Of a DNA stretch of 49,212 bases, positions 5,477 through 30,608 are shown one piece after another. The notes under the pieces are model-generated. The model did not search any database. It was not told where the DNA came from and saw nothing but the letters and a program-made list of their open reading frames with translations. Origin of the DNA: Alphaproteobacteria bacterium. GTDB taxonomy: Bacteria > Pseudomonadota > Alphaproteobacteria > UBA9219 > RFNS01. The position numbers were made by a program, and so were the translations under genes. The stretch lies in assembly GCA_009927055.1 (NCBI GenBank), contig RFNS01000157.1, positions 1 to 49,212 on the forward strand, written 5' to 3'. Positions within the stretch are counted from its first letter, which is position 1. Every line of letters begins with the position of its first letter.

Positions 5477-5550
5477 CCCATTGCAGAACGTCTTATTTGC
5501 ACTATCTTAACTGTCAGCGCTCAAACTGCCCTTTTGCCCAAGAGGAAAAC

Positions 5551-7509
5551 GTGACCACCCCCAACAAAAACAACAACAATCAAGATAATGGCATGCTGCG
5601 ACAATTCGCCGTGTGGCTGATCATTGGCATGCTGGTTTTTGCCTTGTTCGATGTTTTTCAGGGCCAGAATACCAAGCAAATGGGGGCCACTGTCCCCTTC
5701 TCTGATTTTATTGCCAAGGTGGAAGCCGGCGAGGTGACCGAAGCCACGCTGCGCGATCAGCAGGTTATTTTTACAACCCGCAACAGCGCGGTGCCCAACA
5801 ACAGCATTTTACCCTTTAACAATGATGTGAGCGAGCGGCTGATTAACAAAGGCGTGCGCGTGGTGGTCGAGCCGCCGGCGCAGGGCCCCTCGCTCTTCAG
5901 CATTTTCCTTTCGTGGCTGCCGTGGATTTTGATCATGGGTGTGTGGATTTATTTTATGCGCCAGATGCAGGGTGGCGGCGGACGTCTGATGGGTTTTGGA
6001 CGCAGCCGCGCCAAACTGCTGACCGAAAAACATGGCAAAGTCACCTTCGATGATGTGGCCGGCATTGATGAAGCGAAGCAGGAACTTCAAGAAGTGGTTG
6101 AGTTTTTGAAAGACCCGCAAAAATTTCAAAAACTGGGTGGAAAAATTCCCAAAGGTGTGCTGTTGGTTGGCCCCCCCGGCACCGGTAAAACACTGACCGC
6201 CCGCGCCGTGGCGGGTGAGGCGAATGTGCCTTTTTTCACCATCTCAGGCTCTGATTTTGTGGAAATGTTTGTGGGCGTGGGCGCCAGCCGCGTGCGCGAT
6301 ATGTTTGCCGAAGCAAAAAAACACGCGCCGTGCATCATCTTCATCGATGAAATTGATGCGGTGGGTCGTCACCGCGGCGCAGGACTTGGCGGCGGGAATG
6401 ATGAGCGCGAGCAAACCCTGAACCAGCTTCTGGTTGAAATGGATGGGTTTGAGGCGAACGAAGGAATTATTCTGATCGCCGCCACCAACAGGCCCGATGT
6501 GCTGGACCCCGCGCTGCTGCGTCCTGGCCGCTTCGACAGGCAGGTGGTGGTGCCGAACCCCGACGTGGGCGGGCGTGAGAAAATTTTGCGTGTTCATTTG
6601 CGAAAAATCCCTCTCTCGGCCGATGTGAACCCCAAGGTGATTGCGCGTGGCACGCCAGGTTTTTCGGGGGCTGATTTGCAAAATCTTGTGAACGAAGCCG
6701 CGTTGCTGGCCGCACGTCTGAATAAAAGTCAGGTTGGCATGGCCGAGCTGGAATCGGCCAAAGACAAGGTGATGATGGGCACCGAGCGTCGCAGCATGGT
6801 GATGACCGAAAAAGAAAAAGAACTGACGGCCTATCATGAAGCCGGCCACGCCATTGTATCGTTGCACGTGCCCTATGACCCGCTGCACAAAGTCACCATC
6901 ATTCCGCGCGGTCGCGCCCTGGGGGTGACCATGAATTTGCCCGAGCGTGATAAATTTTCGATGAGCAAACAAGAGTTGGAAGCGCGGCTGGCCGTGCTTT
7001 TTGGCGGCCGCATTGCCGAAGATATCATTTTTGGCGCCGAAAATGTGACCACAGGCGCCGGAAACGATATTCAGCAAGCCACCGCCCTGGCCCGCCGCAT
7101 GGTGATGGAATTTGGCATGTCTGAAAAATTGGGGCGCGTGCGCTATCAATCGAACGAGCAGGAAGTTTTTTTGGGGCACAGTGTGGCGCAGCAGCAAAAT
7201 ATTTCTGAAGACACCGCCAGAATTATTGATACAGAAATCCGCCGCTTGATTGAGGAAGGCGAAGTGAAAGCGCGTGAAATTCTCACACAGCGTTTTGATG
7301 ACCTGCACAAACTGGCCAAAGCCTTGCTGGAATATGAAACGCTTTCAGGCGACGAGGTGAACGATTTGCTGGCCGGCAAACCCATCAAGCGCGATGATGG
7401 CAACACACCGCCGCCCATGAAAACGCTTGCGCAGCACGATGCCCACAAAAAATCATCGGTGCCCAGCGCGTCGGGTGATTTTTCGGGCACCGCCCCGCAA
7501 GGCGCCTAA
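5551..7509 (+). CDS. ftsH: ATP-dependent zinc metalloprotease FtsH
   Basis: FtsH is a hexameric inner-membrane protease that degrades misfolded membrane proteins and some regulators. GTG 5551 is chosen as start because AGAGG lies just upstream; a TTG at 5497 would add residues unlike the family. The 652-aa protein has two membrane segments (about 15-38 and 112-135) around a periplasmic loop, the Walker A GPPGTGKT at 207-214, Walker [10 protein letters not shown] near 264, the second region of homology [20 protein letters not shown], and the zinc motif HEAGH at 429-433. The N-terminus is Asn-rich. The tilS-ftsH order is typical; the usual glmM neighbour is here separated by one membrane protein. 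Confidence 0.98.
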
Positions 7510-7547
7510 GCATTTCCATGCGCCGGCCGCTCTGCTAAGGCTTGTGT

Positions 7548-14867: not shown

Positions 14868-17800
14868 TCAGCCTATATTGGCCCGATCGATGCGGAAATC
14901 AAGCCCCTGCCCGTTCACTTCCAGCAGCGTGGCATTGGCGGTATAGAGCAAAAACTGCCTGATGGGTTGCTGCGGAAAAACCTGCTGCAGCAGCGTGGCG
15001 TATCTGTGCAGCTGCAGGCGATATTTTTCTGGCGCATCGCTGCCAAAGCGCGGCACGGCGCGATCGGTTTTATAGTCAATCATCCACAGCGTATCTTCAA
15101 CACACACCAGGCGATCGATCTTGCCTATCCACGCGATACCCTCCGCGTCGCCTATAATCTCGCGCTCGACCAGCGCAGGTACATCGAATATCGGGCGCAG
15201 ATGCGGGCTTTTTATCACCGCCGCGGCTTCCTCCAAACAATCGCGCACCAGGCTGCTGTGGGCCACCCCTTCGCCCACAATTTTTAATACCCACTCTGGC
15301 CATTCGCTTTCGGGCCGTTCGGGCAGCACCTGCAGCAGGGCATGGATGATGTTACCCCTCTCAAGGGCGTGGGCCCGCGCCGCGCCCGCCACCCCGCTAT
15401 CATACGGGTCAGGTGGCGAGACATTCTCGCTTTCCGTCACTCGTTTTTTTTGTGTTTGCGCACTCTCCGCCTGCAAAGAAGATAATGGCGCGGCAAAATC
15501 ATGCGCAATTATTTTTTCCTCTTTCACACTCTCAGACACACCCACATGCTTGGCGGGTTCATGCAAAATAATTTTCTCATCATCCGCGGGTGCCAGATCA
15601 TTTTTCATATCACGCCACGCGGCATAACACACATTGTGCCAGCAATCATCCTCTGGCTTTGATCCGCTCCACGACGCAACAATAAGCTGCTCTTCCGCTC
15701 TGGTCAGGGCCACATATAACAACCTGTAATATTCTTCATCCGTCTCTTGCTGTAAATTTTTTTTAATCGCCTGCCACCGAGGATCGGGCGATGCGTGCCC
15801 CGGCGCGACAAGATAAAAACCATCTCTGTCAAAACCATATTGCAGCGTGTTTTTAAGTCTGGGCGTGGTGGCCTTATCAAGCAAAAAAACAATGGGCGCC
15901 TGCAGGCCTTTGCTGGCGTGCACAGTGAGCAGGCGAACATCGCCTTTTTTTTCTGCTAAATCTCGTTTTACATCGTACGTGGCTTTCATAAACTGATGAA
16001 CAAACGTCTCCAGCCCCGTATCGCTTTTTGAAAATTCACGCCCCAGCACATTCAAAAACTCTGCCATCACATCATCAACATCATAACCTGCCCATTGCCT
16101 AAGCGCCGCAAGGCCACTCTCTGCCGCAGGACATGGTTGATATAGAAGGTGATAAAAAAATTCATCGGGCCGTTTGCAGCACGCTGCATTTCTCACATCA
16201 TTCAACCATGCCAGAATATTTTGCGGCGTTTTTTCACACACCATCGGCCACAGGTTGCCTTCACGCCCATAGCAGCACACAAACAAATCATCCTCTGAAA
16301 AATTGATAAAGGCCGATTTTAATAGACACGCCAAATTATAATCATCAAGCGGATTGAGAGCGAAGGTGGCAGCAAAAATCAAATCCAGCACAGCCTGGTT
16401 TTTCTGCAATTCAATTCTATCGCATCCATTCACCGGAATATGCCGCCGTTTTAATTCTTTGGCCAGTAATGGCATCAAAGGGTCTCGCGTGCGAAGTAGA
16501 ATAAGAATATCATCAGGCCTGACCGGCCTTGCGGTATTGATCAGCGGCACCTCTGCAGAAAGCATGTGGGCAATTTTATCGGCCACCTGTTCAGCCAAAA
16601 TTTGCGCGGCATAGGCTTCATCAACCTCCATACCCGGCAGTGTCCATTCTTCTCGTTTGGGTTTCTTATCAAAAACAATGGGCCATAACTCTATTTTTGC
16701 GCCATCATTTTTCTTGACAGGAAAATGTTGCACTTCCCCTGCCTCTTTGCCTAAATAATTTTTTTTATGCTCAAACACTTTATCGACAGCACGTAAAATA
16801 AGCGGTGATGACCGAAAATTATTTTCTAATTTATGCTCATACCAACCCAGCTGATGTTCTCGCCACAACTGCCGCAACTCTGATTGATGGTGACGAAATA
16901 ATTTTGGCCGCGCCCCTTGGAAACTATAAATCGATTGTTTCGCATCGCCCACCACCATCAACGATCGCTGATACGTCGCATTAATCACAAAATCATCGGC
17001 CATAGCGCGCACAATACGCCACTGCGCGTCTGATGTATCTTGCGCCTCATCTAGCAAAATGTGGTGAATATCTTTGTCCATATCATAGCGCACCGATTCT
17101 GAACGGTTGCCGCCACACAGCATGGCTTTGGCCATCGCGATAAGATCATCATAATCGCGCACATTCATATCTTTTTTAAGTTTCTGATATTCATGTCGCC
17201 AATGCGCATAAATCACGCCTGCTGCGCGTGTCACTGCTGCGTTGATGAAAAGATTTCGCTTGATCAACAAATCTCGATAATGTTCGGCCGCCTCTATAAA
17301 AAAATCATTTTTGGTATAGGTTTCTTTCACTCTTATATCATCCTCAGCATTCAAAAATAGCTTCGATAGCTTTCGCCAATACACAGATGGATTATTTCTA
17401 AAACTGGCAATATCTTCAAGATTTTTTTTCATCTCTTGAAACATATCCAAGCTTAAACGCAACGACTCCAAGCTGGCGAAACGCCGCACCTCATTTTCCC
17501 AATCAATAGGGCGATTGTGCCGTGATGACTCCATGGGTTGATCTGCTGTGTAAGTGAATAAAAATTTATTTAGCCATCCTAACGAAAAATACCTTGAAAT
17601 CAGTGCGACAGATTCACTCAACTCGGCCTCAGTGCCCGATGAAGCGGCAGTAATTATTTTTTTATAGGCTTTTTCCTTAAGGTCGATCACCTGACCATCC
17701 AACGCCAGCGTGGCAAAGGCATTCGTGCCCATATCATCCACATATTTATCCAACAGTTTTTGTGATAACGAATGAATGGTGTGCACGGCAACCGCTTGAT

Positions 17801-18119
17801 TACTCTCCATCATCAACCAATATAAATTTTTTGCGCGCGCCAGCATTTTTTGATCAGTGGCGAGACCAAGACGTGCAAGTTCAACGGTCACATCCGCATC
17901 AGCAAGAGTAGAAAATTCAGAAATTTTGCTCATCACTCTCTGCTCAATCTCGCCCGCGGCCGCCCGCGTAAACGTGATGCAAAGAATTTTGCTGGCCTCA
18001 ACACCACTCAGCAAAAGGGCAAGAAGCCGCGACACAAGAAAAAATGTCTTACCACTGCCGGCTGACGCTTCAACCCACACCGAATTTTCTGGTCGGAAAA
18101 TTTCAAAATTCTTTGTCAT
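14868..18119 (-). CDS. addA: Double-strand break repair helicase/nuclease AddA
   Basis: AddA is the UvrD-like 3'-5' helicase and nuclease subunit of AddAB, which processes double-strand breaks for recombination. The 1083-aa protein has Walker A ASAGSGKT (18-25), [11 protein letters not shown] (Ia), [13 protein letters not shown] (II), [13 protein letters not shown] (III), LLTVHASKG (V), [13 protein letters not shown] (VI) and a C-terminal nuclease domain with GKIDRL and [11 protein letters not shown] 18119 is chosen because it starts directly before the helicase domain and overlaps the addB stop by 17 bases; the longer upstream extension is unlike the family. trxA follows after 11 bases. Confidence 0.96.
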
Positions 18120-20715
18120 CACTATCCCATAAATATCGTCTTGAAAGCAGCACATCATCATAAAAACTGGCGCCATTTCTGCGTGTCACTGCAGCATAAG
18201 CCGATGAAGCATCTACATAATGCATAAGAATTTTTTTCAAATTTGCATCGACATCATCAACCACCTCATCAGCGTTTTTGATTTCAACATTTCTTTTCGC
18301 ATCGTTTTCTTTAACACCCAAACTCCAAAAACAGATGGCAGGTTTTATGCTTGTGTTCATATAATATAAATAATCCAGCAGCAGAAGTTGCGGCTTAAAC
18401 CCTTTTAACACATCAGTCGCAGCCGGAGGATCGCCAGATTTATAATCAATCACATGCACGCGTCCCTCGGCAGATGATGCAATCATATCGGCGCGCCCCA
18501 TTAGAGTTATTTTTTTATCAGCGATGTTGAGGGTGTGGCGCAAAGTCATTTCTGCTTTTGGATTGCTTAAAAAAAAATGTTGCCACATGCGTACAAAATG
18601 TTCGGCAACAACTTGAAGGCGCGGCACCCACACGGCGAACTGAACAGCGCCAGAACCTTTGGGCAAATATTTAACTCCAAGCGCCGTGATATCCTCTGCC
18701 GACAACATTGCGCCGCTGGCTGTCTGCTCGGCCCAGTGCCTTAAAACATCATGCAGCCATGTGCCGTAATCAGCCTGATCAAAATCTTCATCGTGGTCGA
18801 TATCTTCTTTCAAACGTAAAATTTTCTTGACGTAATGGGTATATGGATCACTCATCAACTGTGCAATATCGCTGACAGTATAATCAAGTGGCCTTGCCGC
18901 AACAGGTGGCGCGGCGAATGGAGGATGATACAGCACTGGTGCATGATTTTTTTTGACAACATTTTTAACACGTATGTGATGGGCGAGATGAGGAAACAAT
19001 TCATACAAAACGGGGGCAAATGTTTTGTGGCTGTGCGTTTGTGTTGCCGAACACGTGCAGACAATTTCCTCCGCCGCCGATGCCAATGCCCACACATCAA
19101 ACAATTTCTGCTCATAATCGTACTGAGTGGGATGCAGGCCAAGTTTCTTTGCCACAAATTGCAGACAACCGTTTCGATCACTTGTAGTTGCCCAATTTTT
19201 ATCAAGCCCCGGCAATATCAGCACATCATGCGGCAGCAATCGCGCATCGAGATAGCCCATCACGTTAATGAGTTCTGATGAATAATTGTGTGATTTATCT
19301 TGGTGTTTTTTCCACGCCTGCCACAAGGGGATATAATCAAAATCATCATCCTGGTGGCTGAAGGCGAGTGCCTGATAAAACGTTTGCGTGCCGCCATCTG
19401 CCCATTCAGTTGGACATGATATGATATGGCAAGCGGCGGCCTTGTGCTGCTGAAAAATATTGCTTAACCCCGGCGCACGCTGCAAAAGAATTTTGCGCAA
19501 TGGCCACAAAGCTTCAAGAATTTTCTCAACTATTATCTTCCTCTGATCTTCGATAAGATGCACATTGTCTCGCAACCATTCTAATGTATCAACATGCGGG
19601 TTGAGAGAAAAAAATGTCTTCAATTCCATTTTAAGATGCGCCATATCTTCAGCCTGATGTGAATAAAAAATTTTACTGTTCATCAACTCAAACACATCCA
19701 TCAACGAACAATCTTGCCGCGCTGCATAAAGCACTGCCGATAAATAACACATAATATCGTGCTGATTTGTCGTATTCAGATCTGTGTTTGCACAATCAAT
19801 TTCGGCGGTTTTTAGCAGTGTTGATATTCTTTTAGCATAGGTTGGATGAGATGTGACAATGCTCACCCTCCTCCCATTTTTGCTCATGCTCATGGCCAAA
19901 TCGGCGATATATTTTATTTCCTCATGCGGCGCGTTGAAACACAAAGGAGTTATGCTGGGCTTTGGTTTGTCCACCCCCAAAAACTCAACATGGGCACTTT
20001 CTTTTTGAAGGGCCGGCACATGGTGAAACAAAGGTGCATATATTTTTTCAGAAATCTTCAAGCTGCTGTCATCATCCCTCACACAAGCGGGCAGAACAAT
20101 ATGGCATCCATCAGCCAGTGCGTTGCGAAAAACATTTTGCATCAGGCCCGTGCTGCCTGTGCTGCCTGCAAACCACGTGAGTGCTGGCAATGTGCTGGCA
20201 TGTTGCGCGGCTTTTAGTGGAGCGTGTTCAGGCATGACGGCGGCTGACATCAGTTGCGGCCAAACGCTATAAATCTCGCACACTTCATGCAGCAGCGTTG
20301 ATTGCGCCCTACCTTGCTGATCAGTCAGCACCGCACGCACGGTGCCAGGAGGCACGTTATGCAACAGCAAAAGACCAATGGCGTTGGCAATGCTGGCGGC
20401 CCTTTCTATGACATGAGTCAAAGGACTTTGGCGATGCCGATTTTTTATAGCTTTAAGAATAATAAAAATTTTTTCCCACTCGCTAATTTCGCTGCCGTCA
20501 GAAAGGCTCGACATCGGTATAAGTTGCGGCAGCAATGCTGCTTGCGTTTTCAATTTCTGGATATAAATTTTTCTAAACTCCCGAATTGATCGGGCCGTTG
20601 GCAAATAAACAGTGCACGCGGCCATTGGCCATGCCTGGCCGCCATTTTTTTCAAAAAAAAGATCAATGAATGATGGCAAAAATTTTTCATGCGGCGAGAA
20701 AGTATAAACAGGCAT
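18103..20715 (-). CDS. addB: Double-strand break repair protein AddB
   Basis: AddB is the second subunit of AddAB, with a helicase-like scaffold lacking ATPase motifs and a C-terminal RecB-type nuclease domain. The 870-aa protein matches the alphaproteobacterial form. Its C-terminal half holds VIDYKSGDPP, the nuclease DxK core, preceded by LMGRADMIA. The N-terminal region lacks a canonical Walker A, as expected for this form. ATG 20715 is one base after the amgK stop, which supports it over an upstream start inside amgK. The 3' end overlaps addA by 17 bases, implying coupled translation. Confidence 0.92.
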   Translation of the reverse strand: MPVYTFSPHEKFLPSFIDLFFEKNGGQAWPMAACTVYLPTARSIREFRKIYIQKLKTQAALLPQLIPMSSLSDGSEISEWEKIFIILKAIKNRHRQSPLTHVIERAASIANAIGLLLLHNVPPGTVRAVLTDQQGRAQSTLLHEVCEIYSVWPQLMSAAVMPEHAPLKAAQHASTLPALTWFAGSTGSTGLMQNVFRNALADGCHIVLPACVRDDDSSLKISEKIYAPLFHHVPALQKESAHVEFLGVDKPKPSITPLCFNAPHEEIKYIADLAMSMSKNGRRVSIVTSHPTYAKRISTLLKTAEIDCANTDLNTTNQHDIMCYLSAVLYAARQDCSLMDVFELMNSKIFYSHQAEDMAHLKMELKTFFSLNPHVDTLEWLRDNVHLIEDQRKIIVEKILEALWPLRKILLQRAPGLSNIFQQHKAAACHIISCPTEWADGGTQTFYQALAFSHQDDDFDYIPLWQAWKKHQDKSHNYSSELINVMGYLDARLLPHDVLILPGLDKNWATTSDRNGCLQFVAKKLGLHPTQYDYEQKLFDVWALASAAEEIVCTCSATQTHSHKTFAPVLYELFPHLAHHIRVKNVVKKNHAPVLYHPPFAAPPVAARPLDYTVSDIAQLMSDPYTHYVKKILRLKEDIDHDEDFDQADYGTWLHDVLRHWAEQTASGAMLSAEDITALGVKYLPKGSGAVQFAVWVPRLQVVAEHFVRMWQHFFLSNPKAEMTLRHTLNIADKKITLMGRADMIASSAEGRVHVIDYKSGDPPAATDVLKGFKPQLLLLDYLYYMNTSIKPAICFWSLGVKENDAKRNVEIKNADEVVDDVDANLKKILMHYVDASSAYAAVTRRNGASFYDDVLLSRRYLWDSDDKEF

Positions 20716-20716
20716 G

Positions 20717-21679
20717 CTATTTTTCTGCCCAATGTGGAAAAGATGTTTTGAAAAAATTTCTAAGCGGCGCACATTCTTCTGCCAATAAAATTTTTCTTAC
20801 ATGCGTTTCGATGCGGCCCATGCTGGCGGCTTTGGCGGCATAAAGGGGGTTGGATGAAAGCCTGGCCAGCACACCCAGCACACGCAAATGACGTTGCAAC
20901 GATAAAACAGAAAAACACGACGGCAAGGCAACAGCGTTATAAAATTTTTCTTTTGCTTTTTTGATCAGCGTATCCGGATAATTTCTTCTACTCACCTCAA
21001 GAAGCGAGACGAGATCATATTCAGCCACTGAAACACCCGCCAACTCAAAATCAAGAATGCCGAGATGAAACGCTGCGGGCCTATCATCCAGCCACATCAG
21101 ATTGTCCAGCATAAAATCTCTTAACATTAATGTTTTTGGCTGCTGCAAAAGTGACGATAGCAATGCGCGCATCATTGTTAAAAAATCATTCTTTTCGCCT
21201 TGATCCCATTCTTTTCCTGTTGCGTGCGGCACATAATGTTTGCCAAATTCTTGCAGCTGTTCCACAAAATAATCTACCCCATACTCCGGATAATCAACCA
21301 ACGATGATGCGCAAACATTTTGGTTGATGTGGATCAACACATCGATGGCATGTTCAAGGAATTTTTCGGCGTTCTGCCCTTCATTCACCATGCGGCCGCA
21401 ATTATTTTCTCCATAATCTTCCAGCAGCATATAACCATCATTATCGCTCGCCGCATAAATATCGGGCGCTTTCAACCCGCATGCCTGCAGCACTTTGGCA
21501 GTGCGCTGAAAGTGCACAAACTCACGCCCTGGCGGCATCAACATTAAAATGCATGTGCTGCCTGATTTTTTTTCAAGCCTTGCGTAAGACCGCATCGACC
21601 AATCGGCAGGGAAACTGCGCGTGACCGCTTCATCCCATCTATGGGCGCGTAGAAATGCTTGCAAACTTTCCTGCATCAT
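20717..21679 (-). CDS. amgK: Aminoglycoside-phosphotransferase-fold sugar kinase, probable AmgK
   Basis: AmgK phosphorylates the anomeric position of MurNAc and GlcNAc in the cell-wall recycling route that bypasses de novo UDP-MurNAc synthesis. The 320-aa protein shows the APH-fold loop LRDFMLDNLMW, where the catalytic Asp follows Arg rather than the usual His-x-Asp spacing, and the metal motif ILDFELAG. The family is assigned from fold and neighbours (tsaE upstream, addB downstream). The MurU uridylyltransferase gene, its usual next partner, is absent: addB follows one base after the stop. ATG 21679 is chosen because it overlaps the tsaE stop as ATGATG. A different phosphotransferase substrate is possible. 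Confidence 0.75.
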   Translation of the reverse strand: MMQESLQAFLRAHRWDEAVTRSFPADWSMRSYARLEKKSGSTCILMLMPPGREFVHFQRTAKVLQACGLKAPDIYAASDNDGYMLLEDYGENNCGRMVNEGQNAEKFLEHAIDVLIHINQNVCASSLVDYPEYGVDYFVEQLQEFGKHYVPHATGKEWDQGEKNDFLTMMRALLSSLLQQPKTLMLRDFMLDNLMWLDDRPAAFHLGILDFELAGVSVAEYDLVSLLEVSRRNYPDTLIKKAKEKFYNAVALPSCFSVLSLQRHLRVLGVLARLSSNPLYAAKAASMGRIETHVRKILLAEECAPLRNFFKTSFPHWAEK

Positions 21680-22122
21680 ACTGCGGCAAACGATTTGATA
21701 CGACTTTGCCACGCGCCATAGGGCGAGATCATCACAAAACGCTCGCCGTTTTGGTCGAGAACAAACGTAAAGTGCAGCCTGTTTTTGGGCAACAGTCCGC
21801 CCGCTTTTTCCGGCCATTCAATCAACGCGATATGATCGGCCATCTCTTCCCATGCCAATTCGGCCAACTCGGTCTCGCTGTTCAGGCGATATAAATCATA
21901 GTGCCACACCTGCCCCTGCGATGTTTCATAAATCTGCATCAGCGCATAGGTGGGGCTTGGCACATCTTTTAATTCTGGCGCCATGATTGCCAAAATTTGC
22001 CGTGCAAAGGTTGTTTTGCCCGCGCCCACATCACCCGAAAGAGTGAGACAATCGCCCACGCGCAGCATCGGCACAATTGAGGCGGCAAGTTTTTGTGTGG
22101 CCGCTAAATTAGAAAGTTTCAT
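21676..22122 (-). CDS. tsaE: tRNA threonylcarbamoyladenosine ATPase TsaE
   Basis: TsaE is the small ATPase of the TsaBDE complex that makes the t6A37 modification of ANN-decoding tRNAs. The protein (148 aa from ATG 22122) has Walker A GDVGAGKTTF, the conserved SPTYALMQIY and HYDLYRL elements, and IEWPEKAG. ATG 22122 has a TAGG four bases upstream; ATG 22140 would add six residues and cannot be excluded. It follows the kinase gene by 26 to 44 bases, and its stop overlaps the amgK start by four bases. Confidence 0.94.
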   Translation of the reverse strand: MKLSNLAATQKLAASIVPMLRVGDCLTLSGDVGAGKTTFARQILAIMAPELKDVPSPTYALMQIYETSQGQVWHYDLYRLNSETELAELAWEEMADHIALIEWPEKAGGLLPKNRLHFTFVLDQNGERFVMISPYGAWQSRIKSFAAV

Positions 22123-22166
22123 GCGCCTATCATAGCGCATTGGCCACCGCTGAAAAGGCCCACCAC

Positions 22167-24590
22167 TTAAACAGGAATATGACAGGTCACCGTTGTACCC
22201 TGATGCACGGCGCTTTGCAGATGGATCGTGCCGCCATGCAACTCGATAAAGGCGCGCACCAGCGCCAGCCCAAGACCCACGCCGTTTTGCTGTATCTGCG
22301 GGTTCGCGCGCTCAAACTTGCCCCACACCCGTGCCTGATCGGCCGGCGGAATGCCCACGCCCGTATCGGACACAGTGATGACAATCTGCTGATTGTTTCT
22401 GGTTGCATGCAGAGAGACAATGCCGCCCGGCGGGGTATATTGAATGGCATTAGACAGCAGATTGAAAATGGCCTGCTTGATCCGCTTTTCATCGACATGA
22501 AACTGACCAAGATGGCTGGATAAATCAACCTTCAGCTGAAGCCCTTGCTGGCGAATGCGTTCTGACAACATTTGCACCACCGACTGAACAAGCCCCGACA
22601 CCGAAACCTGTTTTTTATCCAACGTCATGCGTCCGGCTTCAATCATCGCCACATCCAGCACGTCATCAATCAGCGTTTTTAGTTTTTTACTGCTTTCAAG
22701 AAGCGTGCGGGCGTAATCGAGCTGACGTTCGTTCAAGGTGCCAAAATACTGGTTCGCCAATATCTCGGCAAAACCCATAATGGTGTTCAGTGGCGTGCGC
22801 AGTTGATAAGAAACATTCGCCACAAATTCTGATTTTAATCTGTCGGCTGCCGCCAATGCGGCGTTGCTGGCGCGCAGGGCTTGCTCAACCTTAATGCTGT
22901 CGCTGACATCTAAAAAGCAATTCAGCACCGCGCCATCGGGCAGTGGTACGGTGCTGAGGTTGATAATGCCCTGATCCGCCCTGCGGATCATCGCTTTACG
23001 CGAATTGCGATCGAGCACCTGACCAATCAATTCACTTTTATATTGTGTCCAGTTTTCAAATTGCAGCATGGGGCGCATCAGTTCCAGCAGTTCGCTGATG
23101 TGCGGCTCTGATGATAAATCTTGTTCGTTCAAATTCCATGCCGCCACAAACGATGGATTATAAAGTTTTAGCCGCCCATCTGACCCCAGCACCGCAACAC
23201 CTTCTGATAAATGATCCAGCGTCTCGCGCTGCACGGCCAGCACGGTGTTATAACTGGCTTCCAGCGCCAGGCGGTCTGTTACATCTTCGTGTACAAACAT
23301 CACGCCGCCAAACGGGTGTGGAATAGCCATAATGCGCAATGTTGTGCCATCGGGCAGATGCATCATGTCTTCACGCGGCTCGATCAGACTGGTAAAAAGC
23401 GCCAAACGTTCGCGCTTATAACGTTGAAAATCGGCCTGCTCTGGCGCGCGGCGGCGTGCGCGAAGATTTTCAATAATCTCACTAAAACTGGGCCCTGTCG
23501 ATAAAAACGCTTCATCAAAATCCCACAGTTGCACATAGGCGCGGTTATAAAAAATCATGCGCTGATCGGGGCCATAAATGGCAATGGGGGCCGCCAGATT
23601 TTCCAGCACTTCATTATGCGCATCGACATGGCGTTTCACTTCTTCCCGATGCCGCTCAACCTCGCTGATATCTTGCGCAAAACACAGCATGCTTTTTTTG
23701 CTGCCGTCATCTCCTGCATAAGCGGCTACCACCACATCAAACTGTTTTCTTTTCCCATCGACAATCGCGTAAAATTTTTCTGTCTGCGCGCGTTCGGCCA
23801 GCAGGGCTTTTCCTAAAAGATTGCGCATCGCCCCTTTGGATGTGACGGGGAAAAGATCGGTCTGATTTTTCATCACCGTTTCTCGCGCCTGACCCACAGC
23901 CTGTGCATAAGCACTGTTGCACCATTGAATCGATAAATCATCCCCCACAATCCATAGGGGGCAGGGAAGAATATCCATCAACCCAAAAGCCTGCTGCGCC
24001 TGCTGCTCGGCCAGATTGATTTTAGATTCATACTCATCCATTTCGTTTTGAATTTGTGTGTTATCGCGTATCCACAGCACGTCGAATGAATCCTGTGTTG
24101 TGGGGCCCACGTGCCTCTGCCCGCGAATGGCAATCAGCCGACGATCGACAAGCGCGTACGTTCTTATCACAAAGCCCTGCCCTGTCTGCTTCATGCGCTT
24201 ATAGGCTGTCATCAGTTCGGCGCCATCATCAATCGCGTTCACCAAATTATCGATGTGCAAAAATTTCCCCGGCCCCAGAATGGATGGCACGTCGCGCGTT
24301 TCCAAAACCTGCCCCTGAAAATCCATCACCAGCGTGGCACGATTTTGCGTGGCGATCAGCGCCTCAAGCCGCTTGAGTTGCGTTTGCGTCTGCTCTAATT
24401 TTTCTGAATCTTGTTTTTTGTTTTCGTGGGCGGCGAACATCACCATCAACGCAAGCCCAAGCAAAAGCAAAACACCGGTATAAGCCACCCACAGCGGCCA
24501 CGCGCCTCCGCCTGCCCCCAGACTGAGCAAACAGGCAAGCGTCGCCGCCATCAGGCTGATTCGGCCGAGGTTTTTTTGAAAAAAGCCCAT
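22167..24590 (-). CDS. divL: DivL-like PAS sensor kinase with Tyr in place of the phospho-accepting His
   Basis: The 807-aa protein has two N-terminal membrane segments (about 10-50), a coiled coil, about four PAS-like regions between 75 and 570, a dimerisation domain (about 585-650) and a complete-looking ATPase domain (N box FNLLSNAIQYT, G1 DTGVGIP, G2 GVGLGLAL). The H-box reads FVANVSYQLRTPLN: Tyr595 occupies the histidine position. This is the hallmark of DivL, the Caulobacter pseudo-kinase (769 aa) that controls CckA and hence CtrA. A DivL-type role in the cell-cycle phosphorelay is inferred from the Tyr, the PAS array and the length. The symbol is tentative, since other Tyr-box kinases exist in the class. 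AGGG lies five bases before the ATG. Confidence 0.75.
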   Translation of the reverse strand: MGFFQKNLGRISLMAATLACLLSLGAGGGAWPLWVAYTGVLLLLGLALMVMFAAHENKKQDSEKLEQTQTQLKRLEALIATQNRATLVMDFQGQVLETRDVPSILGPGKFLHIDNLVNAIDDGAELMTAYKRMKQTGQGFVIRTYALVDRRLIAIRGQRHVGPTTQDSFDVLWIRDNTQIQNEMDEYESKINLAEQQAQQAFGLMDILPCPLWIVGDDLSIQWCNSAYAQAVGQARETVMKNQTDLFPVTSKGAMRNLLGKALLAERAQTEKFYAIVDGKRKQFDVVVAAYAGDDGSKKSMLCFAQDISEVERHREEVKRHVDAHNEVLENLAAPIAIYGPDQRMIFYNRAYVQLWDFDEAFLSTGPSFSEIIENLRARRRAPEQADFQRYKRERLALFTSLIEPREDMMHLPDGTTLRIMAIPHPFGGVMFVHEDVTDRLALEASYNTVLAVQRETLDHLSEGVAVLGSDGRLKLYNPSFVAAWNLNEQDLSSEPHISELLELMRPMLQFENWTQYKSELIGQVLDRNSRKAMIRRADQGIINLSTVPLPDGAVLNCFLDVSDSIKVEQALRASNAALAAADRLKSEFVANVSYQLRTPLNTIMGFAEILANQYFGTLNERQLDYARTLLESSKKLKTLIDDVLDVAMIEAGRMTLDKKQVSVSGLVQSVVQMLSERIRQQGLQLKVDLSSHLGQFHVDEKRIKQAIFNLLSNAIQYTPPGGIVSLHATRNNQQIVITVSDTGVGIPPADQARVWGKFERANPQIQQNGVGLGLALVRAFIELHGGTIHLQSAVHQGTTVTCHIPV

Positions 24591-24678: not shown

Positions 24679-25992
24679 TCAATAGCGATACATCTCTGGC
24701 TTATAGGGCCCTTCTGAGGCGACACCCAGATAATCGGCCTGCGCGGCCGTTAACGTGGTCAGCCTGGCGCCCAGTTTATCAAGATGCAGGCGCGCCACCA
24801 TTTCATCTAACTTTTTGGGCAGCACATAAACTTGGTTCTGATATTTTCCGTGGTTCTGCCACAGCTCGATTTGCGCCAGCACCTGATTGCTGAAGCTGGC
24901 ACTCATCACAAAACTGGGGTGGCCCGTGGCGCAGCCCAAATTCACCAGTCGGCCCTTGGCCAAAACAATCAGCCGCTTGCCATCGGGGAAAATGACTTCA
25001 TCCACCTGCGGTTTCACTTCCTCCCATTTCAGATTTTGCAGCGCCTCGATCTGAATTTCATTATCAAAGTGGCCGATGTTGCACACAATGGCGCGGTTTT
25101 TCATGGCGCGCATGTGATCGAGTGTAATAACATCACGATTGCCGGTGGCGGTGACAAAAATATCGGCCACGCCCACCACATCGTCCACTGTTGCAACCTG
25201 AAAACCTTCCATCGTCGCCTGCAGCGCGTTGATGGGATCAATTTCTGTCACAACCACGCGGGCGCCTGCCGCCTTCAAACTGGCGGCCGAGCCTTTGCCC
25301 ACATCGCCATAACCGCACACCACAGCCACTTTACCCGCCAGCATCACATCGGTCGCGCGGCGAATACCATCAACCAAACTTTCACGGCAGCCATAAAGAT
25401 TATCAAATTTCGATTTTGTGACGCTGTCATTCACGTTAAAGGCGGGGATTTTCAGCTGACCTTTTTGTTCCATCTGCCGCAGACGATGCACGCCCGTGGT
25501 TGTTTCCTCTGAAACGCCGCACACATCCTTCAGCAATTCAGGATATTTTTCGTGCATCATGCGCGTCAGATCGCCGCCATCATCCAGCAGCATGTTGGGG
25601 CGCCAGCCATGGGGCCCTTCCAGCGTTTGCTCAATACAGCGCCAATATTCTTCTTCGCTCATGTTCTTCCAGGCAAAAACAGGAATACCTTCATCGGCAA
25701 TCGCGGCCGCCGCATGATCTTGCGTTGAAAAAATATTGCACGATGACCAGCGCACCGACGCCCCCAGCTTTTTCAAGGTGCGTATCAGCACCGCGGTTTG
25801 AATGGTCATGTGCAGGCAGCCTGTAATGCGCGCACCCTTTAACGGTTGCTGTGGCCCATATTTTTCACAAATCGCCATCAGCCCCGGCATTTCTGTTTCG
25901 GCCAGCGAGATTTCTCTGCGCCCCCATTCGGCCAGCGTAATATCTTTCACGTCATAATCGTGCGCGACGGATTTGATAGCAGGTTGTGACAT
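24679..25992 (-). CDS. ahcY: Adenosylhomocysteinase
   Basis: AhcY hydrolyses S-adenosylhomocysteine to adenosine and homocysteine, relieving product inhibition of methyltransferases. The 437-aa protein has the N-terminal [14 protein letters not shown] segment, the [10 protein letters not shown] region, the NAD-binding GYGDVGKG loop and the C-terminal YKPEMYRY ending typical of the family. GGAG precedes ATG 25992. It lies 14 bases after the EI gene, so it is probably transcribed with the PTS block. An 88-base AT-rich gap follows before the DivL-like kinase gene and could hold that gene's promoter, though I could not pick one with confidence. Confidence 0.98.
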
Positions 25993-26006: not shown

Positions 26007-27788
26007 TTAGGTGTGAGGGTGCTTTTTCTGACTTCCGACAAAGAAAGTTTGCTGCTCGATCAGCGATTTGATTTCACTCTCATCGTTCTTGGTCATCAGA
26101 AGTTCGGCAAAGCCACTGGCGGCGGCGGCGTGCATATCGCGGATGGTGCGTTTCACCTCGGGCAAGCGGGCGGGCGACATTGAAAGTTCGCGCAGGCCAA
26201 GGCCGATAAGGAGCGGCGCAAAATCAGGATCGCCCGCCATTTCGCCGCACAGGCTGACAGGAATACGGGCGCGCAGCGCTGCCGCCACTGTAAACTGAAT
26301 CAGGCGCAACACAGCCGGATGAATGGGATTATAAAGGCTGGCCACCTGATCATCGCCACGATCAATCGCCAGCGTATATTGGGTCAAATCATTGCTGCCA
26401 ATGGCAAAATAATCGCACACATGGGCCAAGGCATCGGCCGCCAAGGCGGCGGCGGGAATTTCAATCATGGCGCCCAGCGGCGGCAAATCGCGCGATGTTT
26501 TGATGCCGCGACGTGACAGGCGCTTGGCCACCACCACCATATGCTCGCGCACATCCAGCATCTGTCGCACCGACGACACCATGGGAATAAGAATGCGCAC
26601 CGGCCCCAAAGCCGACGCGCGAAGGCATGCCGCCAGCTGTGTTTCCAAAATCTCTGGGTGCTGCAAACAATAACGAATGGCGCGCAAACCCAGCGCAGGG
26701 TTGGGCCCTGCATGCGTCTTTTGTTGCAAACTTGTGGCCAGCTTTTCACCCCCCACATCAAGCGTGCGGATGGTCAGCGGTTTGCCATCCAGTGTCTTGA
26801 CCATTTTGGCCAGTATGGCGGTTTGCTCATCCTCATCAGGCAAATCGGGCCTGTTCATGAACATAAATTCTGTCCGCAGCAGGCCAATGCCAGCAGCGCC
26901 CGATTGCATGGCCGCGGTCATATCGCGCGGAAGCTCAATATTCGCCTGAAGGTTGATGGTCACGCCATCTTGCGTTTCGGCGGGCAGTTTGCGCAAACCC
27001 TTCAGCTTCTCAACATCGGCCTGGCGCTTGGCCATGTGCGACCGCGCCTGTTTCAGGGTGCTGGCCTGCGGGCACACAATCACTTCGCCGGCAAAACCAT
27101 CCACAATCACTTCATCGCCCGTATTGACATGCTGCAGCAACGCGCCAATGCCCATGACAGCCGGAATGCCCAATGATCGGGCCATAATGGCCGCATGACC
27201 TTCGGCGCCGCCCAAAGTGGCTGCGAAGCCAGAGACCAATTCGGGGTTCATCTGCGCCGTGTCGGCGGGCGAAATTTCTTCGGCGAACACAATGCTGCCC
27301 GGCGCAAGCAAAGCGAAAGGATTAAATTTTTGATGCAGCAGCTGGCGAATAACGCGGTGCCCCACATCTTGCAAATCGGCCGCGCGGGCCGATAAATAGG
27401 CATCCTCCATCGCGGCGAAACCCGTCATCAGCCCTTGCAGCGACTGTTGAACGGCGGCCGCGGCGTTCAACTTTTCTTTTTTAATCAAATCCTCGGACCC
27501 GCGCACAAGGCGCGACCCAGAAAGCATGGCCATATGCGCATCAAGGATAATGGATAAATCTTCCGACGCGGCGGCAGGCAACTGACTGGCCTTGCCTTTC
27601 AGCTGCATCAGTTGTCGGCGCGCTTTATCAATCGCGGTGTGCAGGCGGGCCAGTTCATCGTCAACATCGCCGGCGGCCACCGTTGTGTCGGGCACATGAA
27701 TGACGCCGCTTTCAATGACAAACGCGTGCCCAATGGCAATGCCGGGGCTGACGCCGTGTCCGATCAGGCGTGTTTCGTCACTCCTCAT
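26007..27788 (-). CDS. ptsI: PTS phosphoenolpyruvate-protein phosphotransferase (Enzyme I)
   Basis: Enzyme I takes phosphate from phosphoenolpyruvate and passes it to HPr. The 593-aa protein has the phosphorylated His198 in [16 protein letters not shown], the PEP-domain [11 protein letters not shown], and the C-terminal [11 protein letters not shown] and CGEMAGDP segments. No N-terminal GAF domain is present, so it is the EI type rather than PtsP. ATG 27788 overlaps the HPr gene by 11 bases and has an AGAGAAAA upstream; a longer start would lie inside HPr. With EIIA-Man, HPr and HprK upstream it forms the regulatory PTS typical of alphaproteobacteria; no EIIB or EIIC is present here. Confidence 0.96.
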
Positions 27789-28071
27789 CGAATTTTCTCT
27801 GCACAAGTTCTGAAAGCGCCATGATGGCCGCTGGCGCATCGGGCCCGCTGGCACAGATTTTTAGCCGCGTCCCGCGTGAGGCGGCCAGCATCATCAACCC
27901 CATAATCGAATGGCCTGAAACAATGGTTTCTTCCTTTTGCACCTGCACATCGACCTGATATTGCATCACAACCTGCACAAATTTAGAGGCGGCGCGCGCG
28001 TGCAAGCCGCGCTGGTTCATCAGCGTCACCAGTTCGCACAATTCGCCGCCGATGATGATATCATCCTGCAT
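27778..28071 (-). CDS. ptsH: PTS phosphocarrier protein HPr
   Basis: HPr relays phosphate from Enzyme I to EIIA and can be phosphorylated on serine by HprK. The 97-aa protein has the active His24 in NQRGLHARAASKF and the regulatory serine (Ser55) in VSGHSIMGLMMLAA. It is slightly longer than the standard 85-90 residues. Its start shares one base with the EIIA stop (TGATG) and its end overlaps EI by 11 bases, so all three are translationally coupled. Confidence 0.97.
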   Translation of the reverse strand: MQDDIIIGGELCELVTLMNQRGLHARAASKFVQVVMQYQVDVQVQKEETIVSGHSIMGLMMLAASRGTRLKICASGPDAPAAIMALSELVQRKFDEE

Positions 28072-28481
28072 CAGGCCACTTCACCTTTCAGCAGGGCCGA
28101 GGCCACGCTGATATATTTTTTGCCAGATTCTTGCGCATCGTGCACCGATTCAGTGAGTGTTTTTTGGGCGCGAACACCCGCCAGTTTTACCAACATGGGC
28201 AAATTGACGCCCGCAATGACTTCAAGATTATTTTTTTCACCCAGCAGCGAAATGGCCAGATTGCTGGGCGTGCCGCCAAACATATCGGTGCACACCACAA
28301 CGCCCTTGCCGCGATCGACCGCACTGACCGCCGCGCGCAAATCTTCACGGCATTTTTCCACATCATCGTGAGGGCCAATGGCCAGCGCCATGGCCTGCTG
28401 CTGCGGGCCCACCACATGCTCCAGCGCCAGCAACAGCTCAATCCCAACTTTGCCGTGCGTAATTAAAACGATGCCAATCAT
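28071..28481 (-). CDS. PTS EIIA component, mannose family
   Basis: This 136-aa protein is a stand-alone EIIA of the mannose/fructose superfamily. The phosphorylated His9 lies in LITHGKVG, and DMFGGTPSNLA is the family signature. No EIIB, EIIC or EIID genes accompany it, so it probably signals rather than transports. ATG 28481 is preferred over an upstream frame because GAGAGG lies four bases before it and it starts exactly at the EIIA domain. It follows rapZ by ten bases and shares a base with the HPr start. Confidence 0.94.
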   Translation of the reverse strand: MIGIVLITHGKVGIELLLALEHVVGPQQQAMALAIGPHDDVEKCREDLRAAVSAVDRGKGVVVCTDMFGGTPSNLAISLLGEKNNLEVIAGVNLPMLVKLAGVRAQKTLTESVHDAQESGKKYISVASALLKGEVA

Positions 28482-28491
28482 GCTGCCTCTC

Positions 28492-29367
28492 TCATTCCAA
28501 ATCTCTGTGGCCAATACCCACGATATATCCATGCGCGGCGATCGTGCTGCCCAGCTGCTCGGACACCAGAACCGATCTGTGCCGACCGCCTGTGCACCCT
28601 ACCGCGATGGTCAGATAACTTTTGCCCTCTTGCACATAACGTGGCAACAAGGGCACCAGCCAGGCGGCAAGGCCTTGCATAAACGGCTCATAGCTGATGT
28701 CTTGCTGAACAAAAGTGGCCACCTGCGGATCGTGCCCTGTCAGCGCGCGCAATTCACTCTGCCAGTGTGGATTTTGCAAAAAGCGCACATCAAACACCAT
28801 ATCGGCTTCGCGCGGAATGCCATTCTTGAACCCAAACGACATGATGTAAAGATTCAACCCCGAATCCTGATCCATTCTAAAGTGACCTGTCACCAGCCGC
28901 CGCAGATCATGAATGGTGAGCAACGATGTATCGATCACCAAATCGGCCACCTCGCGCACCTGATCCATCATGGTGCGTTCTTCCCGAATGGCCTCAAGCA
29001 CCGAACCATCGGCCGCCAGTGGGTGACGGCGGCGCGTTTCTGAAAAACGCTGCTGCAGCGCGTCGTCGGCACATTCCAGAAACACCAGTTTTACGGCCAG
29101 ATTGATGTTGGACGTGAGTTTGCGATAATTCAAAATTAAATTATCGGCCGAAAAATCGGCATTGCGGGTATCCACCCCAATGGCAATCGGCCGCTTTTCG
29201 GCATGGCTTTGCTGCACCAACTCGGCAATCAAACTCAGGCGCAAGTTATCAACCGCCTCATATCCTAAATCTTCCAGCGCCTTCAGGGCCGTCGAAAGCC
29301 CAGCCCCCGACATGCCTGTCAGAAGCACAACCGGCTGCTGCTCGGCGGGTTTGTCCTTACGTTTCAT
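28492..29367 (-). CDS. rapZ: RNase adapter/nucleotide-binding protein RapZ (YvcJ family)
   Basis: RapZ binds nucleotides and, in E. coli, controls GlmS by delivering the small RNA GlmZ to RNase E; in other bacteria the role is less clear. The 291-aa protein has the family elements GVDTRNADF, FLECADDALQQRF, SFGFKNGIPREADMVFDVRFL and the C-terminal CTGGRHRSV. The P-loop reads GMSGAGLST (residues 18-26): the usual Lys is Leu24, so nucleotide binding may be altered. It overlaps the preceding unknown gene by 11 bases and lies ten bases before EIIA, the standard alphaproteobacterial PTS context. Confidence 0.95.
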   Translation of the reverse strand: MKRKDKPAEQQPVVLLTGMSGAGLSTALKALEDLGYEAVDNLRLSLIAELVQQSHAEKRPIAIGVDTRNADFSADNLILNYRKLTSNINLAVKLVFLECADDALQQRFSETRRRHPLAADGSVLEAIREERTMMDQVREVADLVIDTSLLTIHDLRRLVTGHFRMDQDSGLNLYIMSFGFKNGIPREADMVFDVRFLQNPHWQSELRALTGHDPQVATFVQQDISYEPFMQGLAAWLVPLLPRYVQEGKSYLTIAVGCTGGRHRSVLVSEQLGSTIAAHGYIVGIGHRDLE

Positions 29368-30127
29368 GTGTTGTCATGCGTTGATCGTGAATCATGCCCA
29401 AAACTTGGTGCCATCGTGTGTCATCATAAGGTTTCAGGGCGTCTTGCCAAATGGGCCCCGCCTTTGATGGCCACAAGGCCCCCATGCCCGATGACGTGCG
29501 GCGTAACAGTTTGTGCTCAAACCCATATCTGTGGGCGATTTGGGCCAGCGTGCCAGCCGCATGATTGCGAATGGCGGCCCGCACCAGCATTAAACCAGTT
29601 TCTGAAATATGTTTGCTAACAGCTTCAATCGTCTGATCAAAATTTTTGCCCAGCACATCGGCCGCCAGCCAGACGATGTCATAGTGTTCTGTCAGCCCAT
29701 CCATCAGCTGGATCGTCAGGCCATATTTTTCGGCCAAACCTTTGGTCATGTCGTTGCTTAACTCTGCCGCCGCCCCTCTCAGGCAGGGCAGCACGTGCAC
29801 AGTGGCTTGCGGAAAGGCCAGGGCAAAAGCAATGGCCGTCAGGCCAAACACATTGCCAGACACCAAAATTTTTGGGGCCGCGCCATCAGCATGATGCGCC
29901 AGCGATTCAATCAGCATGATTTCGGCAGGCGCCGCTTCGGCCAGGGGTGAGACCAGGTGATCATCGGCGAACAAAAAACTATCGGCCGCGCGATCAAACC
30001 CCGTCAATCCCGCATCCATGCCCGTTTGCAGGCTTACGCCCGCCACACCATCGTACACGCGCACCACGCGCGCAAACAGGGGGCCATCGCCTTTTTGTTG
30101 TGCCTTTTGCCCCTCTGCATCTGCCAT
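29357..30127 (-). CDS. Unrecognised protein between hprK and rapZ, Rossmann-like
   Basis: I do not recognise this 256-aa protein. The middle part contains KILVSGNVFGLTAIAFALAF, which has the shape of a Rossmann first strand and glycine loop followed by a helix, then TVHVLPCL. That resembles a degenerate class I methyltransferase core, without clear catalytic residues. No signal peptide or membrane helix is evident. It lies 34 bases after hprK and overlaps rapZ by 11 bases, so it is co-expressed with the regulatory PTS. It might act in PTS signalling or be a passenger; neither is shown. Confidence 0.6.
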   Translation of the reverse strand: MADAEGQKAQQKGDGPLFARVVRVYDGVAGVSLQTGMDAGLTGFDRAADSFLFADDHLVSPLAEAAPAEIMLIESLAHHADGAAPKILVSGNVFGLTAIAFALAFPQATVHVLPCLRGAAAELSNDMTKGLAEKYGLTIQLMDGLTEHYDIVWLAADVLGKNFDQTIEAVSKHISETGLMLVRAAIRNHAAGTLAQIAHRYGFEHKLLRRTSSGMGALWPSKAGPIWQDALKPYDDTRWHQVLGMIHDQRMTTHET

Positions 30128-30161: not shown

Positions 30162-30608
30162 TTAAGCCCCGCCATCGTCAACAATCTTGGCGCCCACAAT
30201 CGCCAGCACTTTTGCGGCGGCCGAAACATGCAACCCATCGATGGTGCACAGGGGAAGTTTGATGCCTTCCACCTCATGCCACTCAGGATCAGGCATGCGG
30301 GGGGGGATAAAATCACGCCTCAACGCAAAAGCATGGGTCAGAGGCGTTTTGGGCACCCACTTTTCAGCAGGCAGATGTATCAGCCCATGCCCCCACACTT
30401 CGATCATGCCCTGGGTGGTCAGGGGGCATTCGGCCCACAATTGCCCCCCTTGGGCATGCAGATGCACATAATCATCGGCCACCAGCCTGGCCCCCAGCGC
30501 CAGCAGCTGAAGCGCAAGGGTCGATTTTCCGCTACCCGACGCCCCCATCAACAAGAATCCCTGACCCTCAAGGGTTAAGGCCGTGGCGTGGAGGGGTTGG
30601 TTGCTCAT
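30162..30608 (-). CDS. hprK: HPr kinase/phosphorylase, short alphaproteobacterial form
   Basis: HprK phosphorylates HPr on serine and reverses the reaction. The 148-aa protein contains only the catalytic domain, as in other alphaproteobacteria: Walker A GASGSGKST (22-30), LVADDYVHL and a IEVWGHGLIHLP segment matching the family signature with Trp at the usual Arg position. It opens the PTS block and is divergent from accD across 48 bases. The upstream ChvG/ChvI-type two-component genes that often accompany it are absent here. Confidence 0.93.
   Translation of the reverse strand: MSNQPLHATALTLEGQGFLLMGASGSGKSTLALQLLALGARLVADDYVHLHAQGGQLWAECPLTTQGMIEVWGHGLIHLPAEKWVPKTPLTHAFALRRDFIPPRMPDPEWHEVEGIKLPLCTIDGLHVSAAAKVLAIVGAKIVDDGGA

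What the first reader, a model, noticed from the sequence alone, without database searches (positions are those of the whole stretch)
22781..22840. Sensor kinase with Tyr595 in place of the H-box histidine
VSYQLRTPL replaces the usual SHELRTPL, while the ATP-binding N, G1 and G2 motifs remain. This is the DivL signature, so the gene may encode the cell-cycle pseudo-kinase rather than a classical histidine kinase. Its place between ahcY and tsaE could serve as an anchor for finding divL in distant lineages.
Basis: partly seen in the sequence, partly recalled or inferred. Interest (0 to 1): 0.65.

Follow-up and report, generated by a model that had tools for sequence, protein, structure and literature searches.

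The report
DivL cell-cycle pseudokinase, ordinary ortholog
The gene encodes the alphaproteobacterial cell-cycle regulator DivL, a histidine-kinase look-alike with a tyrosine where the phosphate-accepting histidine should be; it is a normal member of a known family in an uncultured lineage, though relatives show that this tyrosine has been swapped for histidine and other residues several times.

Summary
The minus-strand ORF 22167-24590 (807 aa) reads VSYQLRTPL with Tyr595 (TAT, 22806-22808), and the N, G1 and G2 ATP motifs are intact. The protein is DivL. Its best solved relative is Caulobacter DivL (165.7 bits; next 119.6). In a kinase-core tree all 50 DivL rows, window and Caulobacter included, fall on one side of a branch (SH-aLRT 97), away from PleC/DivJ-like paralogs and CckA. 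It lies in the ptsM-HPr-ptsI-ahcY-divL-tsaE-amgK-addB-addA block, much as in the Brucella bvrRS operon. The genome holds CckA (cut by a contig end), ChpT, CtrA and GcrA. DivK was not found, but its whole neighbourhood is missing, so an assembly gap is as likely as a loss. The ahcY/tsaE anchor works often, not always: either neighbour in 39 of 48 testable named loci. Beyond the finding: the tyrosine is not universal. Among 110 DivL rows it is Y 93, H 10, A 4, C 2, T 1, and H needs six changes on a supported tree, against the published statement of one exception. New member of a known kind.

The parts
22167..24590 (-). divL, 807 aa pseudo-histidine kinase
22806..22808 (-). Tyr595 codon TAT in place of the H-box histidine (H-box 22788-22811)
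22449..22463 (-). N box NLLSN (residues 710-714)
22353..22367 (-). G1 box DTGVG (residues 742-746)
22266..22283 (-). G2 box GVGLGL (residues 770-775)
24426..24497 (-). hydrophobic segment, residues 32-55, probable membrane helix
   Evidence: hydropathy scan; helix in model
24063..24341 (-). PAS-like domain 1 (residues 84-176), not seen by Pfam
   Evidence: secondary structure of AlphaFold2 model, (inference from element order)
23670..23957 (-). PAS domain 2 (residues 212-307)
   Evidence: Pfam PAS_4 208-313
23283..23585 (-). PAS domain 3 (residues 336-436)
   Evidence: Pfam PAS_7 329-442
22908..23201 (-). PAS domain 4 (residues 464-561)
   Evidence: second PAS_7 stretch counted
22638..22904 (-). 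DHp helices (residues 563-651)
   Evidence: HisKA 586-653
22173..22613 (-). CA (ATP-binding) domain (residues 660-806)
   Evidence: HATPase_c 700-806
21676..22140 (-). tsaE
   Evidence: TIGR00150 93.4 bits over cut-off 60.1
24679..25992 (-). ahcY
   Evidence: TIGR00936 644 bits over cut-off 497.6
20717..21817 (-). amgK-like phosphotransferase
   Evidence: Pfam APH; NCBIfam AmgK 104.2 bits, below its cut-off of 500
18103..20772 (-). addB-like nuclease subunit
   Evidence: PDDEXK_1; named by position as in Brucella table
14868..18176 (-). addA-like helicase-nuclease
   Evidence: UvrD-helicase and PDDEXK_1
26007..27854 (-). PTS enzyme I (ptsI)
27778..28071 (-). HPr
   Evidence: PTS-HPr
28071..28532 (-). 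EIIA-man (ptsM)
28492..29367 (-). rapZ
30162..30608 (-). HPr kinase (hprK)
   Evidence: Hpr_kinase_C

Best explanation
The gene is the divL ortholog of an uncultured alphaproteobacterial order. The protein is a dimeric membrane-anchored chain of four PAS domains followed by a DHp-CA histidine-kinase core. Tyr595 replaces the phosphoacceptor histidine (shown), so the core cannot be histidine-phosphorylated at that site (follows from the sequence). As in Caulobacter, the core most likely serves as a docking sensor for phosphorylated DivK or another receiver, and the PAS part acts allosterically on the hybrid kinase CckA, which feeds ChpT and CtrA (inferred from the family; CckA, ChpT and CtrA are shown to be encoded). 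The step through DivK is inferred from relatives only, because DivK is not in this assembly. Dimerisation and membrane anchoring are inferred too.
For: Tyr595 with intact ATP motifs. Best PDB match Caulobacter DivL 4q20, 165.7 bits against 119.6 for the next. Core tree: 50 DivL rows on one side of a branch, SH-aLRT 97 starred. Hydrophobic N-terminus, PAS and DHp-CA architecture. Conserved block with ahcY, tsaE, amgK, addBA as in the Brucella operon table. CtrA over its curated cut-off, 421.8 against 350; ChpT; CckA 62% identical to that of G001 with GGIAHDFNNLLTAMIGF, cut by a contig end; GcrA; a PleC/DivJ-like kinase at C102 grouped with those of relatives. R553 and A601 of Caulobacter DivL map to R598 and A648.
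Against: DivK not found in this assembly (best 34% identity, receiver of a hybrid kinase). T557 of Caulobacter DivL is Asn602 here; T557N lowers DivK~P binding in Caulobacter (PMC4211667), although 73 of 110 DivL rows have N. Tyr562 is Phe607 here and His579 aligns with Tyr626. No interaction or activity was measured. The Caulobacter row is a long branch (1.7) in a quick tree.
Confidence: 0.95

Rival explanations
1. A canonical sensor kinase of the PleC/DivJ/PdhS group whose histidine was lost recently by mutation or misread by sequencing.
For: Domain composition and ATP motifs are those of a HisKA kinase; Tyr and His codons differ by one base.
Against: Tyr is in 34 of 37 loci of the window and its relatives; the row groups with DivL, and the PleC/DivJ-like paralogs, including one of its own genome, form a separate group with SHELRTPLNAI.
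Confidence: 0.01
2. A DivL that works without DivK, with DivK and PleD really lost in this lineage; the core senses another receiver or only supports CckA.
For: No DivK in G000 at 97.28% completeness; none in G003. G009 (99% complete) keeps pleD with no divK beside it. Hyphomonas neptunium can lose DivK while DivL stays essential (PMC7200025, passages).
Against: What is missing in G000 (eipB, divK, prfC, and no pleD seen) is contiguous in G001 and G004, the pattern expected of one missing contig. In G003 the contig ends at the gene that lies between prfC and pleD in G001. A PleC/DivJ-like kinase remains in G000. DivL keeps a full DHp-CA core, which in the literature goes with DivK (PMC2877005).
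Confidence: 0.3
3. Tyr595 is itself phosphorylated (a tyrosine kinase activity).
For: ATP motifs are intact in 88 of 91 scorable Tyr rows, so ATP binding may be selected.
Against: Ala, Cys, Thr and His occur at the same position in orthologs; Caulobacter DivL shows no autophosphorylation in vitro and Y550F still binds DivK~P selectively (PMC4211667, passages). Position +1 here is Gln596, not the acidic residue usual in HisKA kinases (recalled).
Confidence: 0.03

Closest known systems
Caulobacter DivL (PDB 4q20; Tyr550)
   Same: Tyr at the acceptor, intact ATP motifs, PAS domains before a DHp-CA core, CckA/ChpT/CtrA in the genome
   Different: Gln at +1 instead of Glu; Asn602 for Thr557; Phe607 for Tyr562; four PAS-like folds in the model against three in the Caulobacter construct described in the passages read; DivK not found in the assembly
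Brucella abortus divL in the 16-gene bvrR/bvrS operon (PMC9491525, Table 1 read)
   Same: same run hprK, ptsM, HPr, ahcY, divL, tsaE, addB, addA
   Different: here rapZ and ptsI are in the run and an amgK-like gene stands between tsaE and addB; the ChvI/ChvG-like pair lies on another contig (C102)
PleC/DivJ/PdhS-like kinases
   Same: DHp-CA fold, about 40% identity in the core
   Different: SHELRTPLNAI with histidine; separate group in the tree
Short DivL of Rhodobacterales
   Same: PAS part shared
   Different: no kinase core there (PMC9430884, passages); the window has the whole core. A short DivL, 560 aa with PAS only, occurs in relative G038

Membership tests
DivL | Grouping with Caulobacter DivL apart from PleC/DivJ-like kinases and CckA | tested here: met
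   SH-aLRT 97 starred; quick tree, Caulobacter row long.
DivL | Tyr (or another non-His residue) at the phosphoacceptor site | tested here: met
   not universal in the family
DivL | Intact N, G1 and G2 motifs | tested here: met
DivL | Membrane anchor and several PAS domains before DHp-CA | tested here: met
   (anchor by hydropathy only)
DivL | ahcY-divL-tsaE neighbourhood (positional support, not a strict requirement) | tested here: met
DivL | Coexistence with CckA, ChpT and CtrA | tested here: met
   (CckA incomplete at a contig end)
DivL | Coexistence with DivK | tested here: inconclusive
   none in G000; flanking genes absent too
DivL | No kinase activity; binds DivK~P; activates CckA | not testable with these tools
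   needs biochemistry
PleC/DivJ histidine kinase | Phosphoacceptor histidine in the H box | tested here: not met

The most novel reading that the evidence does not exclude
The pseudokinase state of DivL is evolutionarily reversible. The acceptor site changes between tyrosine and histidine on six branches. In the Sneathiella group, L134 and L181 the H box (HE) and the ATP motifs are those of a working kinase, so these DivLs may phosphorylate themselves and act as true kinases or phosphatases in the CckA circuit. In Azospirillum and L132 the histidine comes with a broken ATP site, so inactivity is kept by another lesion. The window protein, with Tyr595 and Gln596, would be the doubly disabled form.
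Probability: 0.35. Interest if true: 0.6.

Novelty: new member of a known kind. Interest (0 to 1): 0.3.

Why it matters
It extends a full-length DivL, with CckA, ChpT and CtrA, to an uncultured alphaproteobacterial order, and gives a measured hit rate for finding divL by its neighbours. The wider survey shows natural DivLs with His, Ala, Cys or Thr at the signature site. That gives ready-made natural variants for testing what the tyrosine is for, a question addressed in the passages read here by point mutants in Caulobacter (PMC4211667).

Tried and rejected
Considered and rejected: recent loss of the histidine in a PleC/DivJ-type kinase; DivL of the short kinase-less type.

Led nowhere or was inconclusive: looking for DivK through its flanks showed that eipB, divK and prfC are missing together in G000 but not why. 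A link between His at the acceptor and a broken ATP site looked strong by Fisher's test (88 of 91 Tyr rows intact against 6 of 10 His rows, p 0.0015) but is carried by 2 of 6 independent pairs at most and is not significant on the tree. The core tree places two Sneathiella rows at the base of DivL while the full-length tree nests them, so for Sneathiella the direction of change (His kept or regained) is open. A scan of viral contigs for ahcY found no relative. A first synteny count measured flanks wrongly where a locus held a second kinase match and was redone. In one search a script failed because a gapped copy of the window protein was read; it was rerun. One search read the same gapped copy, which the aligner realigned; the check line showed the right columns.

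Rows dropped before counts: the aligned DivL set has 118 rows (window, 36 other order/class loci, L207 and 80 named loci). Eight were left out: L078, L207, L075, L033, L107, L104, L103 and L106 (partial, or the same record as a G locus), leaving 110; for the ATP motifs two cut-off Tyr rows (L035, L038) were also left out. The careful tree holds 58 of these 110, chosen to keep all non-Tyr rows and a spread of Tyr rows. The core tree holds 48 chosen DivL rows besides the window and Caulobacter.

Full report
What is there. The minus-strand ORF at 22167-24590 encodes 807 aa. Its H box reads FVANVSYQLRTPLNTIMGF; the acceptor residue is Tyr595, codon TAT at 22806-22808. The N box NLLSN, G1 DTGVG and G2 GVGLGL are intact. 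Pfam finds PAS_4 (208-313), PAS_7 (best stretch 329-442, two stretches), HisKA (586-653) and HATPase_c (700-806). One hydrophobic segment covers residues 32-55. An AlphaFold2 model (mean pLDDT 80.3, pTM 0.37, so the domains are fair and their arrangement is not) shows two N-terminal helices, then four runs of PAS-like elements (84-176, 212-307, 336-436, 464-561), the two DHp helices and a CA domain. The first PAS-like domain is my reading of the element order; Pfam does not see it. No structural search was run on the model.

Identity. By sequence the best solved relative is Caulobacter DivL, 4q20, at 165.7 bits for the whole protein, the next 119.6; with the core alone 168.1 against 123.1. NCBIfam shows no DivL model among the 25 hits listed of 84, and no hit listed passes its cut-off. 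I built a kinase-core tree of 82 rows: the window, 48 chosen DivL candidates from the order/class loci and the 80 named loci, Caulobacter 4q20, 18 SHELRTPLNA-type paralogs of relatives, eight kinases of the window's genome, 4jas and five CckA. All 50 DivL rows fall on one side of a branch with SH-aLRT 97 (starred); CckA is separate (99); 17 of the 18 paralogs, plus the C102 kinase of the window's genome, form another group (96). Limits: a quick tree; the Caulobacter row has a long branch; the paralogs are called PleC/DivJ-like from NCBIfam best hits below cut-off on six of them and the C102 kinase together, not from named references.

Surroundings. On the same strand lie hprK 30162-30608, a 256-aa ORF without a Pfam family (29357-30127), rapZ, ptsM (EIIA-man), HPr, ptsI, ahcY, divL, tsaE, an amgK-like gene, addB-like and addA-like. 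The Brucella abortus bvrR/bvrS operon runs bvrR, bvrS, hprK, an unknown, ptsM, ptsO, a pseudogene, ahcY, an unknown, divL, tsaE, a guanylyltransferase, addB, addA, an unknown, trx-1 (PMC9491525, Table 1 and passages read), and its authors call the operon ancestral to Alphaproteobacteria members. I measured how far it reaches. Among 80 named genome loci found with the DivL profile (the best 80 of 570 kept by the tool, so biased to close relatives), ahcY lies upstream on the same strand within 4 kb in 40 of 58 loci with enough flank, tsaE downstream within 3 kb in 44 of 63, both in 25 of 48, either in 39 of 48, and amgK in 38 of 59. In 30 loci of the window's own order, with short flanks, tsaE is next to divL in 24 of 26 and ahcY in 14 of 24. 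Presence was scored with the window's own proteins at E 1e-5, so divergent tsaE copies can be missed and the rates are lower bounds.

The pathway. In the window's genome (G000, 97.28% complete, 315 contigs) I found CtrA (C95:5872-6621, NF045991 at 421.8 bits against a cut-off of 350), ChpT (C86:14746-15093, over the Pfam cut-off; 133.5 and 119.8 bits for the two NCBIfam ChpT models, below their cut-offs of 240 and 225), GcrA and CckA (C175, 62% identical to G001's CckA over residues 22-547 and then cut by the contig end). ChpT stands next to a CheA with CheW domains and a CheB. In the 39 genomes searched, CckA at E 1e-60 or better is in 36 and ChpT in 36. In G001 and G004 the order is aspS, a GGDEF gene, eipB, divK, pleD, (one more gene in G001) prfC. 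G000 lacks eipB, divK and prfC in direct searches, while its aspS and rnd lie inside a 49-kb contig with other neighbours downstream. No pleD was recognised among its receiver-domain hits that I classified (10 of 21 places), but pleD was not searched for by itself. A single missing contig explains this at least as well as a deletion. G009 (99% complete) has pleD without divK beside it and eipB elsewhere, so DivK may really be lost there while DivL keeps its core and its Tyr.

How it works. Published work on Caulobacter (PMC4211667, passages read) says that DivL lacks kinase and phosphatase activity, binds DivK~P through the DHp docking surface, needs PAS domains for phospho-specific binding, and passes the signal to CckA. 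Y550H keeps DivK~P binding, is stimulated to autophosphorylate by DivK~P, and harms growth and morphology. The same scheme is the most likely here: shown are the gene, the Tyr, the ATP motifs, the domain order and the presence of CckA, ChpT and CtrA; inferred are the membrane anchor, receiver binding and control of CckA. Docking positions map as R553 to R598, A601 to A648, T557 to N602, Y562 to F607 and H579 to Y626. Asn at the T557 position is the residue of Caulobacter DivJ, and T557N weakened DivK~P binding there, but 73 of 110 DivL rows carry Asn, so it is not a special mark of this protein. Gln596 stands where HisKA kinases usually have an acidic residue (recalled); 39 of 93 Tyr rows share Gln, 53 have Glu and one His.

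The tyrosine is not universal. Childers and colleagues state that Tyr is conserved throughout DivL homologs except for Ala in Magnetospirillum magneticum (PMC4211667, passage). In the 80 named loci here the residue is Y in 65, H in 9, A in 4, C in 1 and T in 1; in the 110 less redundant rows Y 93, H 10, A 4, C 2, T 1. Several non-Tyr genes sit in the divL place: three Sneathiella-group loci between ahcY and tsaE, L132 and L126 before tsaE, L124 and L128 after ahcY, and L137 between both; L111, L116, L134, L140 and L029 have neither neighbour within the flank held, and L131, L168 and L181 showed neither with too little flank on one or both sides (L076 was not scored). On a careful 58-row tree His needs six changes, forced by starred branches and the same in the bootstrap range 6-6, and one His clade is rejected (p-AU 2.1e-6; the group was named after a first tree had been seen). 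Nested cases such as L029 (G011, inside a Tyr genus; CAT against TAT and TAC in two genus mates) and L132 read most simply as Tyr to His. For Sneathiella the direction is open, since the two trees differ. The His forms fall into two sorts: His-Glu with all six ATP-site residues intact (L134, L145, L149, L151, L181), and His with a broken ATP site (Azospirillum L111, L116, L126 with His-His; L132 with His-Glu); L029 is His-Gln with an intact site. The link between His and a broken site is not significant once the tree is allowed for. G011, with the His form, has both DivK (65%) and CckA (63%). I found no report of His-bearing DivL in the search listings or in the passages I read; most papers were seen only as listings, and subscription journals are not held.

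Verdict. A correct reading of an ordinary DivL ortholog in an uncultured lineage, with a known gene neighbourhood. The only part that goes past what I saw in print is the recurrent replacement of the signature tyrosine in relatives.

Noticed in passing
L029 (G011), L111, L116, L126, L132, L134, L145, L149, L151, L181: DivL orthologs with histidine at the pseudokinase tyrosine site, six changes on the tree; some with intact and some with broken ATP sites.
   Followed up: yes
L124, L128, L137, L140 (Ala), L076 and L131 (Cys), L168 (Thr): DivL orthologs with other residues at the acceptor site, the Ala and Cys rows forming one supported group.
   Followed up: partly
L234 (G009:C33): pleD without divK beside it in a 99% complete genome that keeps full-length DivL with Tyr; a possible real loss of DivK with the DivL core retained.
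   Followed up: partly
L205 (G038:C124), 4796-6475: A 560-aa DivL relative with PAS domains only and no kinase core, in a genome with no DivK hit.
   Followed up: partly
L061 (G000:C86:8000-16500): chpT stands in a chemotaxis cluster next to CheA with CheW and receiver domains, a CheY-like receiver and CheB.
   Followed up: no
L202 (G002): divK-pleD-prfC lies directly upstream of divL-tsaE-amgK, so DivK and DivL are genetically linked in this relative.
   Followed up: no
window 34874-37081 (-), 41963-44674 (+), 7542-9458 (+): Three long ORFs (735, 903 and 638 aa) without any Pfam family at E 0.001.
   Followed up: no
window 39199-41166 (-): Squalene-hopene cyclase, which suggests hopanoid synthesis.
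   Followed up: no
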